Shown: piece by piece, positions 13,396-41,317 of the stretch
Numbering within the stretch: position 1 is the stretch's first letter
Layout: every line of letters begins with the position of its first letter
Virus record (IMG/VR): IMGVR_UViG_3300020172_003394
Location: 1 to 64,000 of that record
Strand: one strand, 5' to 3'
Length of the DNA: 64,000 bases
Origin: a virus
Made by a program: the position numbers and the translations under genes
The notes under the pieces: model-generated
What the model was told of the DNA's origin: nothing
Database searches by the model: none
What the model saw: only the letters and a program-made list of their open reading frames with translations

Positions 13396-14409
13396 ATGAT
13401 TAGATACGCTGATGTAATTGTAGATTTACAGGCAGGTGATACGGGGAAAGGGAAGGTTGCTCACGCACTTGCAAATGAGTATGACCTTATCATTCGTTAT
13501 AATGGTGGATCAAACGCTGGTCATACTGTGTATCACGATGGAAAGAAAGTTGTGACGCATCTTGTTCCTATTGGTGTATTGTTCGGTATTCCAAGTGTGA
13601 TTGGATTTGGATGTGTAGTAAATATAAAAAAGTTGGAAGAAGAAATTAAAGATTTAAATAACATTGGTTTTAAGACCGATGGACTTATCTTCGTTGATGA
13701 ACGTTGTCACTTGGTATTGGGCAAACACATCGAAGAAGATAGCTCGGATAACAAGATTGGAACAACCAGACAAGGAATTGGCCCAACGTATCGTGATAAG
13801 TATAACCGCACGGGTATACGGATGAAGGACTTGGGTATCCAACCTTCATTATTATTTTCCGTAATTGATACTTATGAGTTATTCCACAATAAACATAACG
13901 ACTGGCGTATCTTATGTGAAGGTGCGCAAGGTTTCCAAATTGATATTGATTGGGGTGATTATCCATATGTTACCAGCTCGCATTGCACGATTGGGTCAGC
14001 GGTTCTGAATGGAATTCCTCCACAGAAAATACAGAAGGTCATCGGTACTATGAAAGCATACGAAACTTATTCTGGATTTAAAACCACGTTCCAAGATGAA
14101 AACGACCCTATCTTACAAAAGATACAAGAAGTTGGTGGGGAAGTCGGAGCCACCACAGGTCGTAAGCGTAAAGTTCGTTGGTTAGACCTTGATGGTGTTA
14201 TTAAAGCAATCAACATTAATGGAGTCACGGACCTTATCATTAATAAAGCAGATATATTAAAGGAAGTAGGTATATTTAATTATGTATACAAAAATGAATT
14301 ACATAAATGTTATATACTAGATGATATGATTTCAGAAATAGATTGTATATTATATGATAACACCGAAGTAAAAAATATTATTTGGTCAATGACGCCTAAT
14401 GGAATTTAA
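13396..14409 (+). CDS. purA: Adenylosuccinate synthetase family (PurA / PurZ-like)
   Basis: A 337-aa enzyme. The phosphate-binding GDTGKGK is at residues 14-20 and the catalytic His at NAGHT (40-44). GTTRQGIGPTY is near 120, EGAQGFQIDIDWG near 175, GATTGRKRKV near 255 and the base-recognition NKAD near 280. PurA joins IMP and aspartate to adenylosuccinate. The protein is about 90 residues shorter than bacterial PurA and closer in size to archaeal PurA and to phage PurZ, which acts on dGMP to make the precursor of 2-aminoadenine. The Asp that PurZ is reported to lack is kept here (GD), with Thr after it instead of Glu. PurA or a PurZ0-like enzyme are both possible. Confidence 0.8.
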   Translation: MIRYADVIVDLQAGDTGKGKVAHALANEYDLIIRYNGGSNAGHTVYHDGKKVVTHLVPIGVLFGIPSVIGFGCVVNIKKLEEEIKDLNNIGFKTDGLIFVDERCHLVLGKHIEEDSSDNKIGTTRQGIGPTYRDKYNRTGIRMKDLGIQPSLLFSVIDTYELFHNKHNDWRILCEGAQGFQIDIDWGDYPYVTSSHCTIGSAVLNGIPPQKIQKVIGTMKAYETYSGFKTTFQDENDPILQKIQEVGGEVGATTGRKRKVRWLDLDGVIKAININGVTDLIINKADILKEVGIFNYVYKNELHKCYILDDMISEIDCILYDNTEVKNIIWSMTPNGI

Positions 14410-20137: not shown

Positions 20138-20170
20138 AAGACCGACTTGACAAATCAATTCGGTCTTTTT
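20138..20170 (+). terminator. Terminator hairpin overlapping the tmRNA promoter
   Basis: AAGACCGA pairs with TCGGTCTT, followed by TTT. The TTGACA of the tmRNA promoter lies in the loop. Confidence 0.65.
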
Positions 20171-20175
20171 ATATT
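20147..20175 (+). promoter_or_regulatory. Promoter of the tmRNA gene
   Basis: TTGACA, 17-base spacer, TATATT, about 28 bp upstream of the mature tmRNA 5' end. Confidence 0.8.
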
Positions 20176-20203: not shown

Positions 20204-20555
20204 GGGCCCGCCTGGTTTCGACAGGATGTGGATGACTGAACTTTGTGTCCAGCTTGGTAAATCTGGTAAAACAGACCGAAAAATATTAACTGGCAACTAT
20301 AACAGTCCAGCCCTCGCCCTCGCTGCGTAAGCAGTAGAGCCGAAGGACCGAATATCTGACCCACATAAGGGTATTCGGAATCATTATGTGGTGTAGTGTT
20401 AGTGACGGTTCGTATCTAACACCAAACACTTCGATCCTATGTTCAATGTATGTTTGTTCCGTGTCACGCATTGAATGAAATCAAACAAGGAACTACACAC
20501 ATAAATGTTTAGTAGGAAGCAGTCTTGGACGAGGGTTCGACTCCCTCCGGGTCCA
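20204..20555 (+). ncRNA. ssrA: Transfer-messenger RNA (tmRNA)
   Basis: A complete one-piece tmRNA of about 352 nt. GGGCCCG at the 5' end pairs with CGGGTCC at the 3' end, and the universal TGGTTTCGACAGG follows the 5' stem. The T arm GAGGGTTCGACTCCCTC precedes the 3' end, with A as discriminator; CCA is not encoded. The tag frame, 20292-20330, reads GNYNSPALALAA and then TAA, with a resume codon GGC. Two pseudoknots are visible: CCGAATA/TATTCGG with CCACATAA/TTATGTGG, and TTCAATG/CATTGAA with GTTCC/GGAAC. It rescues stalled ribosomes with SmpB, presumably supplied by the host. Confidence 0.95.
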
Positions 20556-20596
20556 CTTAAATTGATGGTTGTGTTAATAATTTTATGGAGACAGTA

Positions 20597-20875: not shown

Positions 20876-21505
20876 ATGTTGATTCAGTCTAAGGTGTCCG
20901 ATGAAAAATATATTTGGATAAGGATACCAAGAACTGCATCAAAAACGTATGGTAAAATATTTTTTCCTGATGGTAATTACGAACACAGACACAATAACTA
21001 TTATCACGAAACTTACACTCACGGTGAAATAAACGCATTTTCTGTTGTCAGACATCCCTATACTAGATTTATATCTTCAATAAAGTATATGATAAAACAG
21101 CAGAACTTAAGAGGAAAACTTGATAGATTTAATTTCACACTACCATACGAAAACACAGAAGTTTTATGTGAGTTTTTTAACAACAACTTAGAAAAATTAA
21201 AAGATTGTTTTTCCAACACATCGTATCACGAAGTATTTAAAACCACAGACGTAAGTTTTGTAAAATTATTTTTTATACCACAACACCACTATGCAGGGTT
21301 TACACCAGTAAAAATTTTTAGATACGAATCACTAAATAATTTTAATGAATGGATTGAAACAACTTTGGGGTACGACACATCAAAAATAGAGGTGTTTAAC
21401 AGTTCAGCTGATGAGCTTCAACACATAGATTTTGAAAACCCAAAGTTGATAAGTATTGTACAACGGTTATTTGAAGAAGATTATAAATTTTTCGGTTATG
21501 TTTAA
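20876..21505 (+). CDS. Sulfotransferase-like protein
   Basis: A 209-aa protein with a 5'-phosphosulfate-binding-like loop IPRTASKTY (about residues 17-25) and a 3'-phosphate-binding-like stretch VVRHPYTRFISSIKYM (about 57-72), the two sites that hold PAPS in sulfotransferases. The C-terminus (RLFEEDYKFFGY) fits the family. It should move a sulfate group to a sugar or protein. A homologue lies at 23405-24100 and a more distant one at 34510-35196. Confidence 0.7.
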   Translation: MLIQSKVSDEKYIWIRIPRTASKTYGKIFFPDGNYEHRHNNYYHETYTHGEINAFSVVRHPYTRFISSIKYMIKQQNLRGKLDRFNFTLPYENTEVLCEFFNNNLEKLKDCFSNTSYHEVFKTTDVSFVKLFFIPQHHYAGFTPVKIFRYESLNNFNEWIETTLGYDTSKIEVFNSSADELQHIDFENPKLISIVQRLFEEDYKFFGYV

Positions 21506-22868: not shown

Positions 22869-23402
22869 ATGGTTATGGCGTTAGATTCGACTAAATGTGT
22901 TGTTCTGAATGCCACGTATGAGCCCATAACAGTCGTGACTTCGAAGCGAGCACTATTGTTATTTTTAGAAGGAAAAGCTATCATAGTCGAGGAACATCCA
23001 GAGCTTGTGGTACGGTCACCAAGACAGACATTCCCTGTACCGTTGATGATTGCGTTAGTACGCTATATCAAGGGCCGCCGTGTATTTAAGACACCAGCTT
23101 TACTCACACAGAAAAACCTATTTGTTCGTGATGCATATACTTGCCAATATTGTAATCGGCATAAAAGTGCGTTCCGTCCTAGTGAATTTTTAACTCGTGA
23201 CCACGTACATCCTGTTGCAAAGGGTGGTCAAGACAAGTGGGAAAATGTAGTCACAAGTTGTAGTACGTGTAATAATAAAAAAGCAGATAAGTTATTAGAG
23301 ATGACTACAATGAAACTAGCAAAATTACCTGTCACCCCCACTATTTTTGAGTTGTGGACAAAGCAACAGGCACGAACTAACAGAGTAATAATGGTTGCAT
23401 AA
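22869..23402 (+). CDS. HNH endonuclease
   Basis: A 177-aa protein. The HNH core begins with YTCQYC (Cys92, Cys95), followed by RDHVHP (Asp111, His112, His114) and SCSTCNNKKAD with Cys131 and Cys134. Such enzymes are homing or packaging-related nucleases in phages. It follows the UVR-like gene by three bases and is part of the same run, which argues for a resident role rather than a recent homing insertion. Confidence 0.85.
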   Translation: MVMALDSTKCVVLNATYEPITVVTSKRALLLFLEGKAIIVEEHPELVVRSPRQTFPVPLMIALVRYIKGRRVFKTPALLTQKNLFVRDAYTCQYCNRHKSAFRPSEFLTRDHVHPVAKGGQDKWENVVTSCSTCNNKKADKLLEMTTMKLAKLPVTPTIFELWTKQQARTNRVIMVA

Positions 23403-23404
23403 CT

Positions 23405-24100
23405 ATGCTGATAACATCTAAAATTGATGGTAAAAAATGGTTATGGGTCAACGTTCCCAAAACTGCTTCGACCGCAGTTATGAGAACGTTTTTCCCATCT
23501 ATGCAAGTAAATGACCAACAACATCAAACATACAATCACCTTATAGAAATGTATGGTGAGTTAGATGCATTTACTACAATACGAAATCCTATAACACGAT
23601 TTAAATCTGCATTAAATCATACGTTAAATGTATGTGCGTGTGGTAAATGTAAAATAGTAGATGGTCCCGTAGATAAATTAGATGTCATACGTTTTTTAGG
23701 TGACATGCTAAAATTAAAAGGTAGTCGTAAAGACTTTTTTCGAGCAGTATATATGAACGGATTAAGTAATTACGAAATGAATGTAGCAAATAGCATGAAC
23801 GAACGATTTAATAAATACTTGATACCAAATGGTATAATGTGTCTACGAATCCCAGCTTATGTTTCACAAACTTTTATATTAGAAGGACCGCAAGAAAAAC
23901 TTCGTATATTTAGGTATGAAAACCTACAAGAATTGTCGGGATTCATTAAGAACACATTAGGATACGATATGGATAATACTTTATATCGAAAATATCCTAA
24001 TAAATTGGGGGTTGACTTTTATGACCCTACCCTGTTAGATTTAGTCCACGAGCTATATTATGAAGATTTCACTAACTTTAACTACGGAAAACGGTTATGA
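23405..24100 (+). CDS. Sulfotransferase-like protein
   Basis: A 231-aa relative of the 20876 gene: VPKTASTAVMRTFF (about residues 17-30) matches the phosphosulfate loop, and IRNPITRFKSALNH (about 58-71) the 3'-phosphate site. The C-terminus ends in LYYEDFTNFNYG, as in the other copy. A CACGKCK insertion near residue 77 could bind metal. It overlaps the HD gene by 4 bp. Confidence 0.7.
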   Translation: MLITSKIDGKKWLWVNVPKTASTAVMRTFFPSMQVNDQQHQTYNHLIEMYGELDAFTTIRNPITRFKSALNHTLNVCACGKCKIVDGPVDKLDVIRFLGDMLKLKGSRKDFFRAVYMNGLSNYEMNVANSMNERFNKYLIPNGIMCLRIPAYVSQTFILEGPQEKLRIFRYENLQELSGFIKNTLGYDMDNTLYRKYPNKLGVDFYDPTLLDLVHELYYEDFTNFNYGKRL

Positions 24101-24813: not shown

Positions 24814-25029
24814 ATGACGATACTCAAATGTAAAAACTGTGGAGAAACCCAAAATCTACATACCAACTACGCGTATCATTTACCCGATACGCCTGTAGAA
24901 AGTATTTTGTGTAATGAATGTGGGGAGATTACCGAAGTAACGCATGGTGATAGAAGCTTAACTAGCATAAGCACCGGCTTGTGGCGCCGGGGACAGCGGG
25001 GGCAGCACCCGTCTATCACCCTGTGGTAA
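24814..25029 (+). CDS. Zinc-ribbon protein whose 3' end overlaps tRNA-His
   Basis: A frame of 71 codons begins with ATG three bases after tRNA-Leu. The first 40 residues contain CKNCG and CNECG, a convincing zinc ribbon. After residue 44 the frame reads through the tRNA-His gene and ends after it, giving a basic, Gly/Arg-rich tail. Either the gene genuinely overlaps the tRNA, or the original stop was lost. No ribosome-binding site is visible. Confidence 0.35.
   Translation: MTILKCKNCGETQNLHTNYAYHLPDTPVESILCNECGEITEVTHGDRSLTSISTGLWRRGQRGQHPSITLW
24946..25020 (+). tRNA. trnH-gug: tRNA-His (GUG), atypical T loop
   Basis: GGTGATAG pairs with CTATCACC over 8 bp (the extra G-1:C73 pair of tRNA-His). 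Anticodon stem CCGGC/GCCGG holds TTGTGGC. The T stem GCGGG/CCCGT encloses GGCAGCA instead of TTCRANY, and the D loop lacks the usual GG. A second 3' half follows at 25021-25059. Confidence 0.7.
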
Positions 25030-28940: not shown

Positions 28941-29312
28941 TTAAAGTGGTAATTCAGTAAGATTATTCTCTCGGTCTAAATACTTCATTTCGACCTTAAC
29001 AGGATTAAATTCCTGAATGGCATTTACCACAAGTTGTGGGTCAAGTGTACCGCAGGTATATACATCAAGTTGTAATAAACCAGGTGAGACTTCATCCCAC
29101 ACGTGAAGTGCGATGTGACTTGTTTCGATGATGGCAACAGCAGTAAGACCACGATTACCAGCGACATCAAGATAGTTCGCAAATGGTCCCATCATAACTT
29201 TCATACCAATGGAAGAAATAAGTGTTTCCATCCAATGTATTGTAGTTTGTTTGTCTGTTGGTGGATTGGTGACTTCGGCACGAACGATAAGATGTTTATG
29301 AACGAGTGGCAT
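28941..29312 (-). CDS. speD: S-adenosylmethionine decarboxylase-like protein (SpeD)
   Basis: A 123-aa protein. The processing site is ETSHIALHVW with Ser65 as the residue expected to become the pyruvoyl group, and YTCG (about residues 85-88) supplies the catalytic Cys. SpeD makes decarboxylated SAM for spermidine synthesis; speD is a known auxiliary gene of marine T4-like phages. It is the only minus-strand gene between 4.6 and 64 kb and lies directly beside tRNA-Phe, which suggests separate acquisition. Confidence 0.8.
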   Translation of the reverse strand: MPLVHKHLIVRAEVTNPPTDKQTTIHWMETLISSIGMKVMMGPFANYLDVAGNRGLTAVAIIETSHIALHVWDEVSPGLLQLDVYTCGTLDPQLVVNAIQEFNPVKVEMKYLDRENNLTELPL

Positions 29313-29381: not shown

Positions 29382-29477
29382 ATGAAAGCAGCAGTTATTA
29401 CATTTTTAATAATAGCTATTAGTATAAGCTTGACAACCGCGTGGATAGCTATTATATTAGAAAGGGACGAGTTTTAG
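29382..29477 (+). CDS. Membrane micropeptide (31 aa)
   Basis: ATG follows AAGGAAA. Nearly the whole peptide is one transmembrane helix (VITFLIIAISISLTTAWIAII), with a short acidic end. The last bases of the stop codon are the first bases of tRNA-Trp. Confidence 0.5.
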   Translation: MKAAVITFLIIAISISLTTAWIAIILERDEF

Positions 29478-31801: not shown

Positions 31802-31886
31802 GGACAGTTGGCTGAGTGGTCTAAAGCAGGAGATTACTAATCTCTCGTACTGAAAGGTACCGTGGGTTCGAATCCTACACTGTCCG
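31802..31886 (+). tRNA. trnS-acu: tRNA-Ser (ACU anticodon)
   Basis: Acceptor GGACAGT/ACTGTCC, discriminator G, long variable arm, T loop TTCGAAT. The anticodon stem GGAGA/TCTCT holds TTACTAA, so position 34 is A, where bacteria normally have G (GCU). Confidence 0.85.
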
Positions 31887-36875: not shown

Positions 36876-36921
36876 ACCGTGACGCTCAATAGTGAGGTCA
36901 CATAACATAGGAGGTCATTTT

Positions 36922-37401
36922 ATGACTCATTTAGTATTTCGCCCATTCGGGTCAACGGTTTTGAACAATCGGGATAACTTCATCAGCACATTTGATAAGA
37001 TGTTTGATGAATTTGCCAGAAAAGATTTCCCTGAGTTTTTCCAACACTTCGGGGCAGAGCCTTTTGGAAAGGCAGCATATCCAAAGGTTAATGTAATTAC
37101 AAATGACGAGGCTGTAGTTATTGAAGCAGAACTCGCTGGTTACAAGAAGGATGAAATTGATATTGAGGTCAAGGAAGGGGTCTTGACCATTTCGGGTGGT
37201 ACATCACAATTGAACGAGCAAACTGATAAAGTAGTTTATCTTCTACGAGAATTGAAGCGAAGCTCATTCTCTCGATCCTTTAAGCTCGGTGACCAATTGG
37301 ATGCATCAGAAGTAAATGCAAAGTTTGATAATGGGTTACTTACAATCACAATCCAAAAATTGCAAAAGGAGCCAGAGTCGAAAAAGGTTACGATTAAGTA
37401 A
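36922..37401 (+). CDS. Hsp20-type small heat-shock protein
   Basis: A 159-aa protein; ATG at 36922 follows GGAGG. The alpha-crystallin domain spans about 55-145 (YPKVNVITNDEAVVIEAELAG..., VLTISGG, FSRSFKLGD, FDNGLLTI). It ends in a basic tail. Small heat-shock proteins hold unfolding proteins; hsp20 genes are common in T4-like cyanophages and may help virion assembly. A Cys-rich micropeptide follows directly. Confidence 0.92.
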   Translation: MTHLVFRPFGSTVLNNRDNFISTFDKMFDEFARKDFPEFFQHFGAEPFGKAAYPKVNVITNDEAVVIEAELAGYKKDEIDIEVKEGVLTISGGTSQLNEQTDKVVYLLRELKRSSFSRSFKLGDQLDASEVNAKFDNGLLTITIQKLQKEPESKKVTIK

Positions 37402-39661: not shown

Positions 39662-40284
39662 TAAGTTTCGCAATCACAACACACAATGAAGGACACTATA
39701 TTCAGCACCTACTGGACCAGCTCGTTCCCCACTGTGAAAAGACAGGGGATGAGATTGTTGTGGTGGATGATCATTCTACAGATTCATTTACCTCACAGAT
39801 ATTATATGGGTATGAAGAGCAGGATAAAATTAAATTGTATAGTCATGCACTAAACAACGATTTTGCCGCACATAAAAATTATCTCAATTCTGTGTGTGAT
39901 GGAGACTATATTTTCCAAGTAGATGCGGATGAAAAATTTCACGATAATCTCTTGACTTATTTACATGATATCGTGTATAATAATACTAACGTAGATTTGT
40001 TTTTAATTCCTCGTATTAATGTTGTTGCTGGTTTGACCGACGACGATATGCGTAGATGGGGATGGGTTATAGATGAAAAGGGTTGGGTAATGTTCCCAGA
40101 CTATCAGACTCGTTTATATAGAAACGTAGAAAATATTAAGTGGGAAGGAAAGGTGCATGAACGGATTGTAGGATACCAAACACACGCACCACTTCCAGCA
40201 GAAGAAGAATGGAGTTTGTATCATATCAAGGACATCAAGAGACAGCGGGAGCAAAACGCATATTATGACACAATTACACGGTAA
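39658..40284 (+). CDS. Family 2 glycosyltransferase
   Basis: A 208-aa GT-A protein: FAITTHNEGHYI at residues 4-15 and EIVVVDDHSTDS near 33-44 are typical of the GT2 family, and VDADEKF near residue 87 supplies the DxD metal site. It is short and ends inside the start of the next gene (20-bp overlap), so the extreme C-terminus may be missing compared with longer relatives. Acceptor unknown. Confidence 0.85.
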   Translation: MISFAITTHNEGHYIQHLLDQLVPHCEKTGDEIVVVDDHSTDSFTSQILYGYEEQDKIKLYSHALNNDFAAHKNYLNSVCDGDYIFQVDADEKFHDNLLTYLHDIVYNNTNVDLFLIPRINVVAGLTDDDMRRWGWVIDEKGWVMFPDYQTRLYRNVENIKWEGKVHERIVGYQTHAPLPAEEEWSLYHIKDIKRQREQNAYYDTITR

Positions 40285-41317
40285 GCAAGCACTCACCTAC
40301 GATGATATAAATTTAATTCCATCGTTTTCGAGTATTGAATCACGTAACACAATTGACCTATCTACACAACTTACGACTAATTATAAGATCAGAATTCCAT
40401 TAATTGCGTCACCAATGGATACGGTATGTGATAGTGAAATGGCAATCGCAATGGAAGAACTTGGTGGAGTTGGTATTATCCACAGATTTATGTCTATTGA
40501 AGAACAATCCAAGGAAGTTAGTAGGGTGTTTCTACATACGCATATCATTGGTAGATGGGTCTTTAACGGAATTCCACAGAGAGTTCCCGTATCTGCCGCA
40601 ATCGGAGCAAACGGTGACTATCTAGAACGAGCACAGGAGTTGACAAAGCAAGGTGCTAATGTTATACTAATAGATGTGGCTCATGGATATCATAAGTTTG
40701 TGATGGAGGCAATTCGTAATTTGAAGAAAACACTTCCGTCACACGTTGATATCATCGCAGGAAATGTGGCAACGGGAGACGCAGCATATAACTTACAGGA
40801 TGCAGGAGCAGATGCAATCCGTGTTGGTATCGGTGGTGGGTCACTTTGCACTACTCGTATTAAGACTGGTTTTGGTGTTCCAAATGTGACTTCACTCCAA
40901 GATTGTGCACAAGATGTGAGTGTTCCTATTATCGCATGTGGTGGTATTCGGTCAAGTGGTGATATTGCAAAAGCGTTGGGAGTTGGAGCAAGTTCAGTAA
41001 TCCTTGGGTCACTCATCGCAGGAACGAAAGAAGCGCCTGGAGCAATTCTTGAAAAGAACAATGGGTTGTATAAGCGGTATCGTGGAGCCGCATCGTTGGA
41101 AACGAAGAGTATTCACGGTCAAGCAAAGAGAAATGTGGAAGGAGAATCCACAGTTGTTCCGTTTAAGGGTGGTGTAAAGTTCATCGTAGAGGGTTTGTTG
41201 GATGGAGTACGGTCAGCATTGTCGTATGCAGGAGCAAACAATCTCGGTGAATATTTCCCAGAATATGTTGTCGTGACTCAAGCTGGAGTAAATGAGGCAA
41301 GACCACATATTCTCTAA
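40265..41317 (+). CDS. IMP dehydrogenase / GMP reductase family protein
   Basis: A 350-aa TIM barrel without CBS domains. LTYDDINLIPSFSSI opens the protein, SPMDTV follows, and the catalytic Cys195 lies in GGGSLCTTR. IIACGGIRSSGDIAKALG is near 223, and YKRYRGAAS carries the mobile-flap Arg-Tyr dyad. IMPDH makes XMP; GMP reductase returns GMP to IMP. The NVEGE and C-terminal SYAGA blocks resemble GuaC, the flap resembles IMPDH, so the direction is open. It would act on the same pool as the PurA-like enzyme. Confidence 0.85.
   Translation: MTQLHGKQALTYDDINLIPSFSSIESRNTIDLSTQLTTNYKIRIPLIASPMDTVCDSEMAIAMEELGGVGIIHRFMSIEEQSKEVSRVFLHTHIIGRWVFNGIPQRVPVSAAIGANGDYLERAQELTKQGANVILIDVAHGYHKFVMEAIRNLKKTLPSHVDIIAGNVATGDAAYNLQDAGADAIRVGIGGGSLCTTRIKTGFGVPNVTSLQDCAQDVSVPIIACGGIRSSGDIAKALGVGASSVILGSLIAGTKEAPGAILEKNNGLYKRYRGAASLETKSIHGQAKRNVEGESTVVPFKGGVKFIVEGLLDGVRSALSYAGANNLGEYFPEYVVVTQAGVNEARPHIL

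What the first reader, a model, noticed from the sequence alone, without database searches (positions are those of the whole stretch)
20204..20555. Complete phage-encoded tmRNA with tag GNYNSPALALAA
All parts are visible: paired acceptor, UUCGAC core, T arm, tag frame with stop, and two classic pseudoknots, all behind its own consensus promoter. tmRNA is rarely found in phages. No smpB-like gene is seen here, so the phage probably uses host SmpB. The tag may differ from the host tag and so steer tagged proteins to another protease.
Basis: partly seen in the sequence, partly recalled or inferred. Interest (0 to 1): 0.8.

Follow-up and report, generated by a model that had tools for sequence, protein, structure and literature searches.

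The report
Phage-encoded ribosome-rescue RNA (tmRNA)
This lake phage carries a complete, well-formed gene for tmRNA, the RNA that frees stalled ribosomes and marks unfinished proteins for destruction; phage tmRNAs are already known, so it is a solid new member of a known kind rather than a new system.

Summary
Window 20204-20555 (+) is a standard one-piece tmRNA gene: Rfam RF00023 141.6 bits, E 2e-55, full model; ARAGORN gives the same span and the tag GNYNSPALALAA. It has G3.U70 and A73, the TTCGAC core, a tag frame with its stop in the P5 hairpin, and all four pseudoknots, not two, with strong covariation over 14 relatives.

The gene belongs to a group of T4-like phages. All 16 loci with enough sequence upstream of the same HNH gene carry it there. 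No SmpB was found in the 86-kb record or in relatives up to 167 kb, so host SmpB is the likely partner.

The protease-switch idea is not supported: the C-terminal ALAA degron is kept in every readable phage tag, as in most Bacteroidota tags sampled; only the N-terminal part and the length (8-12 aa) vary.

The promoter is supported: the same TTGACA-N17-TATATT precedes two tRNA clusters. In many relatives tmRNA instead abuts the upstream gene.

Phage tmRNAs are known in about 2.3% of phage genomes (PMC9004378), including flavobacterial phages. New member of a known kind.

The parts
20204..20555 (+). tmRNA (ssrA) gene, mature part up to discriminator A73; first C of CCA at 20556, rest of CCA not encoded
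   Evidence: ARAGORN; RF00023 141.6 bits, E 2e-55; sequence
20204..20210 (+). acceptor stem 5' strand GGGCCCG, pairs with 20548-20554 CGGGTCC; third pair is G.U, the alanine identity element
   Evidence: 98 of 98 cells paired in 14 relatives, G.U invariant
20531..20547 (+). T arm GAGGG-TTCGACT-CCCTC
   Evidence: 70 of 70 cells paired, 2 covarying pairs
20249..20279 (+). pseudoknot 1: H3 20249-20252/20263-20266, H4 20254-20258/20275-20279
   Evidence: H3 100% and H4 98.6% of cells paired, H3 two covarying pairs
20292..20330 (+). tag reading frame GNYNSPALALAA plus stop TAA; resume codon GGC
20322..20335 (+). P5 hairpin GCTGC-GTAA-GCAGT holding the tag stop codon
   Evidence: same hairpin in all 14 relatives
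20348..20390 (+). pseudoknot 2: H6 20348-20354/20372-20378, H7 20362-20368/20384-20390
   Evidence: H7 85.6% paired, 3 covarying pairs; H6 68% in this alignment register
20396..20437 (+). pseudoknot 3: H8 20396-20402/20416-20422, H9 20407-20412/20432-20437
   Evidence: 96.9% and 95.2% paired, 4 and 4 covarying pairs
20442..20493 (+). pseudoknot 4: H10 20442-20448/20469-20475, H11 20456-20463/20486-20493
   Evidence: 92.6% and 98.2% paired, 6 and 3 covarying pairs
20147..20175 (+). sigma-70-type promoter TTGACA-N17-TATATT
   Evidence: 11 of 12 matches; same motif 44-45 nt before tRNA heads at 29475 and 32083; conserved in L105 and L107
20138..20170 (+). hairpin AAGACCGA..TCGGTCTT plus T run, probable terminator of the UDP-glucose dehydrogenase gene; overlaps the -35 box
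   Evidence: z -5.45; conserved in L105 and L107
20585..20872 (+). small conserved gene of unknown function directly downstream; related genes follow the tmRNA in many relatives
   Evidence: no Pfam hit
22869..23402 (+). HNH endonuclease gene, syntenic marker of the tmRNA locus in this phage group

Best explanation
It is a functional, phage-encoded one-piece tmRNA. Shown: complete tmRNA anatomy with covariation under selection, and stable inheritance at one locus of a phage group. Inferred: it is transcribed from its own sigma-70-type promoter (plus readthrough), trimmed at the 5' end by RNase P, given CCA by the host CCA-adding enzyme, charged with alanine by host AlaRS through G3.U70, carried to stalled ribosomes by host SmpB, and made to add A+GNYNSPALALAA to the stuck chain. 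The conserved ALAA end then hands the chain to the host's usual tag-directed proteolysis (ClpXP type). The likely benefit is extra ribosome recycling during infection, when mRNA decay and codon mismatch raise stalling; this fits a phage that also carries about 30 tRNA genes.
For: ARAGORN and RF00023. Covariation: 91.0% of cells paired against 79.7% shuffled and 32-44% when slid; 31 pairs and 129 cells changed on both sides against 42 shuffled cells. Acceptor 98 of 98 cells paired, G3.U70 invariant. Synteny: all 16 loci with enough sequence upstream of the HNH gene carry a tmRNA there (13, three of them cut by the contig end, plus L253, L258 and L265, whose tmRNAs were seen). Of 43 related records the same four have the HNH gene and the tmRNA. 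ALAA in 22 of 22 readable phage tags. No SmpB in any phage record tested, while three candidate host-type genomes have it.
Against: No expression data. The host is unknown, so pairing with its SmpB and proteases is not tested. The hairpin that overlaps the -35 box could limit the promoter. H6 of PK2 is only 68% paired in the register used. The record is a fragment (linear, 86 kb), so an smpB elsewhere in this phage is not excluded, though larger relatives also lack it.
Confidence: 0.85

Rival explanations
1. The phage tag redirects tagged proteins to a different protease than the host tag.
For: The tag is longer than the 9-10 aa common in the Bacteroidota sampled, has a SPA insert relative to GNYNLALAA, and replaces the usual aromatic residue before ALAA by L. 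None of the 23 matches to the GNYN-type pattern in 84,980 genomes has L before ALAA or 12 aa.
Against: ALAA, the main ClpXP determinant in E. coli, is unchanged in all 22 readable phage tags; the N-terminal part varies freely even between near relatives (GNYNSPALALAA, GNSYSQPLALAA, GTQEFALAA), which does not look like a dedicated new signal.
Confidence: 0.07
2. It is a decoy or inhibitor of host trans-translation, like the tag-less tmRNA form of mycobacteriophage DS6A, reported to inhibit the endogenous tmRNA in E. coli (cited in PMC11915505).
For: No phage SmpB, so it must compete with host tmRNA for SmpB.
Against: A full tag frame with stop, degron and P5 hairpin is kept throughout the group; a decoy would not need them.
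Confidence: 0.06
3. It is an integration-site relic: a host ssrA copy or fragment carried because the phage inserts at ssrA.
For: tmRNA genes are common attachment sites (general knowledge; discussed in PMC9004378).
Against: No tyrosine integrase (PF00589) in this record or in four relatives of 131-167 kb; the gene is whole, covaries, lies in a fixed phage context, and phage copies form their own long-stemmed clade (support 0.997 for the close set). Serine integrases were not searched.
Confidence: 0.02

Closest known systems
Bacterial one-piece tmRNA, RF00023, Bacteroidota type (tags such as GNYNYALAA, GNYNVALAA, GENNYALAA)
   Same: Full covariance-model match, G3.U70, four pseudoknots, G-start tag ending in ALAA, CCA not encoded
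   Different: GGGC instead of GGGG at the acceptor start; no aromatic residue before ALAA; 12-aa tag; long separate branch in the tree
tmRNAs of isolated phages (402 of 18,146 phage genomes, 133 distinct; PMC9004378)
   Same: Complete ssrA gene in a virulent-type phage, several with many tRNA genes
   Different: Melnitz and most aquatic ones listed there are two-piece permuted; this one is one-piece
tmRNAs of flavobacterial phages Calle (20 tRNAs, 1 tmRNA; PMC8776804) and Panino (tmRNA discussed, with an integrase; PMC11590407)
   Same: Phages of aquatic Bacteroidota with a tmRNA; Calle also has many tRNAs
   Different: Sequences not compared here; nearest isolates by terminase, Flavobacterium phage immuto and Microcystis phage Mel-JY01, lack tmRNA
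Huge-phage tmRNA and SmpB sets (PMC7162821)
   Same: Phage tmRNA as part of translation genes
   Different: No SmpB in this group

Membership tests
tmRNA (RF00023) | Covariance model match over the whole RNA | tested here: met
   141.6 bits, positions 1-374 of 374, E 2e-55
tmRNA (RF00023) | tRNA-like domain: acceptor with G3.U70, A73, T arm, D-like core TTCGAC | tested here: met
   sequence; acceptor 98/98 and T stem 70/70 cells paired, G.U invariant
tmRNA (RF00023) | Tag frame with resume codon, hydrophobic C-terminal degron and stop in P5 | tested here: met
   GGC...ALAA-TAA, P5 in all 14
tmRNA (RF00023) | Four pseudoknots of the standard form | tested here: met
   H6 of PK2 the weakest
tmRNA (RF00023) | SmpB partner | tested here: inconclusive
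   Not in the phage; host unknown, though three GNYN-tag Bacteroidota genomes have it
tmRNA (RF00023) | Transcript, alanylation, tagging | not testable with these tools
   needs infected cells or in vitro assay
Two-piece (permuted) tmRNA | 3' part of the tRNA-like domain placed before the 5' part, with an excised intervening segment | tested here: not met
   standard 5'-to-3' order over the whole model

The most novel reading that the evidence does not exclude
A phage lineage has kept its own tmRNA long enough to evolve a phage-specific tag in which only the last four residues (ALAA) are fixed while the N-terminal part drifts in sequence and length (8-12 aa); the phage tag would thus be an adaptor-independent degron that works in hosts with different tags and adaptors.
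Probability: 0.2. Interest if true: 0.5.

Novelty: new member of a known kind. Interest (0 to 1): 0.3.

Why it matters
It adds a well-supported group of one-piece phage tmRNAs (22 readable tags, fixed locus, covariation) to a small literature on phage ribosome rescue, and shows which part of the tag is under constraint in phages. It also shows that a standard tool misses or misreads some of these tags, so phage tmRNA counts are likely low.

Tried and rejected
DNA similarity search of the tmRNA in 50,697 phage records: no match, as for the 40-64 kb stretch. SmpB Pfam search of the record and 22 phage records: none. Protease-switch reading: rejected for lack of change in ALAA. Integration relic: no tyrosine integrase. 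Assigning the host from the tag: Bacteroidota suggested by GNYN tags, but rejected as a firm call because the phage has Shine-Dalgarno cores at 21 of 44 gene starts, against 2 of 58 in a Flavobacterium phage, and sigma-70-type promoters, while Bacteroidota lack Shine-Dalgarno sequences (PMC6847099 abstract). A tree of phage and bacterial tmRNAs did not place the phage clade inside any sampled host group: its link to a Chloroflexi sequence has support 0.45 only.

Full report
CHECK. ARAGORN finds one tmRNA in the window, 20204-20556 (+), with the tag GNYNSPALALAA. Rfam's tmRNA model matches the same place over its whole length with 141.6 bits, E 2e-55, three times the gathering score. The sequence shows GGGCCCG at the 5' end pairing with CGGGTCC, the third pair being G.U, then A73; only one C of CCA is encoded.

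STRUCTURE. I aligned 14 related phage tmRNAs and counted pairs for a structure written from the window sequence. 91.0% of cells pair, against 79.7% after shuffling and 32-44% when partners are slid; 31 of 71 pairs change on both sides somewhere, 129 cells against 42 shuffled. Eight of the nine stems of PK1-PK4 and the T arm pair in 86-100% of cells; H6 of PK2 is weaker (68%), and one internal P5 stem was misregistered in that alignment, but P5 with the tag stop in its loop is present in all 14. The acceptor, counted after moving one gap by hand, pairs in 98 of 98 cells with G3.U70 invariant. The structure was derived from one of these sequences, so cell pairing alone would be biased; the two-sided changes are the real evidence.

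WHERE IT LIVES. The window is part of an 86,228-base linear virus record. Terminase, primase, SbcCD-like and baseplate genes make it a T4-like phage; nearest isolates by terminase are Flavobacterium phage immuto (52.7%) and Microcystis phage Mel-JY01 (52.5%), both without tmRNA. A tag pattern found 14 viral contigs, all with tmRNA. Of 44 related records, most of them short, four have tmRNA; the HNH gene that lies 2.3 kb downstream in the window is found in exactly those four among the 43 tested. Starting instead from the HNH gene, all 16 loci with enough upstream sequence have a tmRNA there (with 16, 17). Upstream genes differ, downstream genes are kept. So it is a stably inherited phage gene.

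TAG. The 22 readable phage loci give GNYNLALAA (most), GNYTLALAA, GNEYLALAA, GNNQLALAA, GNQLALAA, GNYNAPLALAA, GNYNSPALALAA (window and L092), GNSYSQPLALAA and GTQEFALAA. ALAA is invariant, L before it nearly so. Bacteroidota tmRNAs sampled end mostly in ALAA, AMAA or RLAA with an aromatic residue before or near it. A scan of 84,980 species genomes for GNYN-type tags found 23 stretches, 22 with a tmRNA at the hit, tags GNYN[YVF]ALAA or GNYNQVALAA, none with the phage form; this scan fixed GGC as resume codon, so it is not exhaustive. In E. coli the C-terminal LAA is the ClpX signal and the N-terminal part binds the adaptor SspB (established knowledge). The phage tags keep the former and vary the latter. 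That argues for ordinary degradation, not a new protease.

PARTNER AND EXPRESSION. No SmpB was found in the record nor in 22 phage records, including tmRNA-bearing relatives of 146, 148 and 167 kb. Three bacterial genomes with GNYN tags do have it. TTGACA-N17-TATATT lies at 20147-20175; the same hexamers and spacing stand before tRNA heads at 29475 and 32083, rare in shuffled upstream sequence (simple base shuffles, so only a rough guide). The -35 box sits inside a hairpin followed by T, probably the terminator of the UDP-glucose dehydrogenase gene. The whole element is kept in L105 and L107, where the same gene lies upstream; in many other relatives tmRNA starts right after an upstream stop codon, so there it is probably co-transcribed.

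HOST. Unresolved. The tag looks like Bacteroidota tags and many lipoprotein-like genes look similar, but the phage uses Shine-Dalgarno sequences (21 of 44 starts; other ATGs 87 of 1156) where a Flavobacterium phage does not (2 of 58). The tree gives the phage tmRNAs their own clade, support 0.997 for 13 close members and 0.825 with L096, without a secure bacterial sister.

KNOWN OR NEW. Complete phage tmRNAs are established: 402 of 18,146 phage genomes, 133 distinct (PMC9004378, read); huge phages carry tmRNA and SmpB (PMC7162821); flavobacterial phages Calle (PMC8776804) and Panino (PMC11590407) have one. This is a new member of a known kind. Interest 0.3: solid and useful for the biology of phage tags, but not surprising.

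Noticed in passing
window 24947-25020 (+): A tRNA-His (GTG) that ARAGORN misses and Rfam scores at 35 bits. Its acceptor and anticodon stems are paired, with changes on both sides relative to relatives, but the T loop lacks the usual TTC (GCGGG-GGCAGCA-CCCGT). With it the phage would have tRNAs for all 20 amino acids.
   Followed up: partly
window gene starts; L250: Shine-Dalgarno cores at 21 of 44 gene starts against 2 of 58 in Flavobacterium phage immuto, although the tmRNA tag looks like Bacteroidota tags: host conflict.
   Followed up: partly
L107 1501-1855, L251 1872-2226, L092, L108, L255: ARAGORN gives a nonsense 29-aa tag for L107 and L251 and reports no tmRNA for L092, L108 and L255, though Rfam finds them; true tags are GNSYSQPLALAA, GNYNSPALALAA, GNQLALAA and GTQEFALAA.
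   Followed up: yes
window 13396-14409 and 40265-41317: An adenylosuccinate-synthetase-like gene matching PHROG 1211, the family named for an aminoadenine-type synthetase, plus a gene that reads like IMP dehydrogenase; altered purine metabolism or modified DNA is possible.
   Followed up: no
window 28941-29312 (-), 36892-37401 (+), 20876-21505 and 23405-24100 (+): S-adenosylmethionine decarboxylase, Hsp20 and two sulfotransferase-like genes.
   Followed up: no
window 31802-31886 (+): tRNA-Ser predicted with the unusual anticodon ACT.
   Followed up: no
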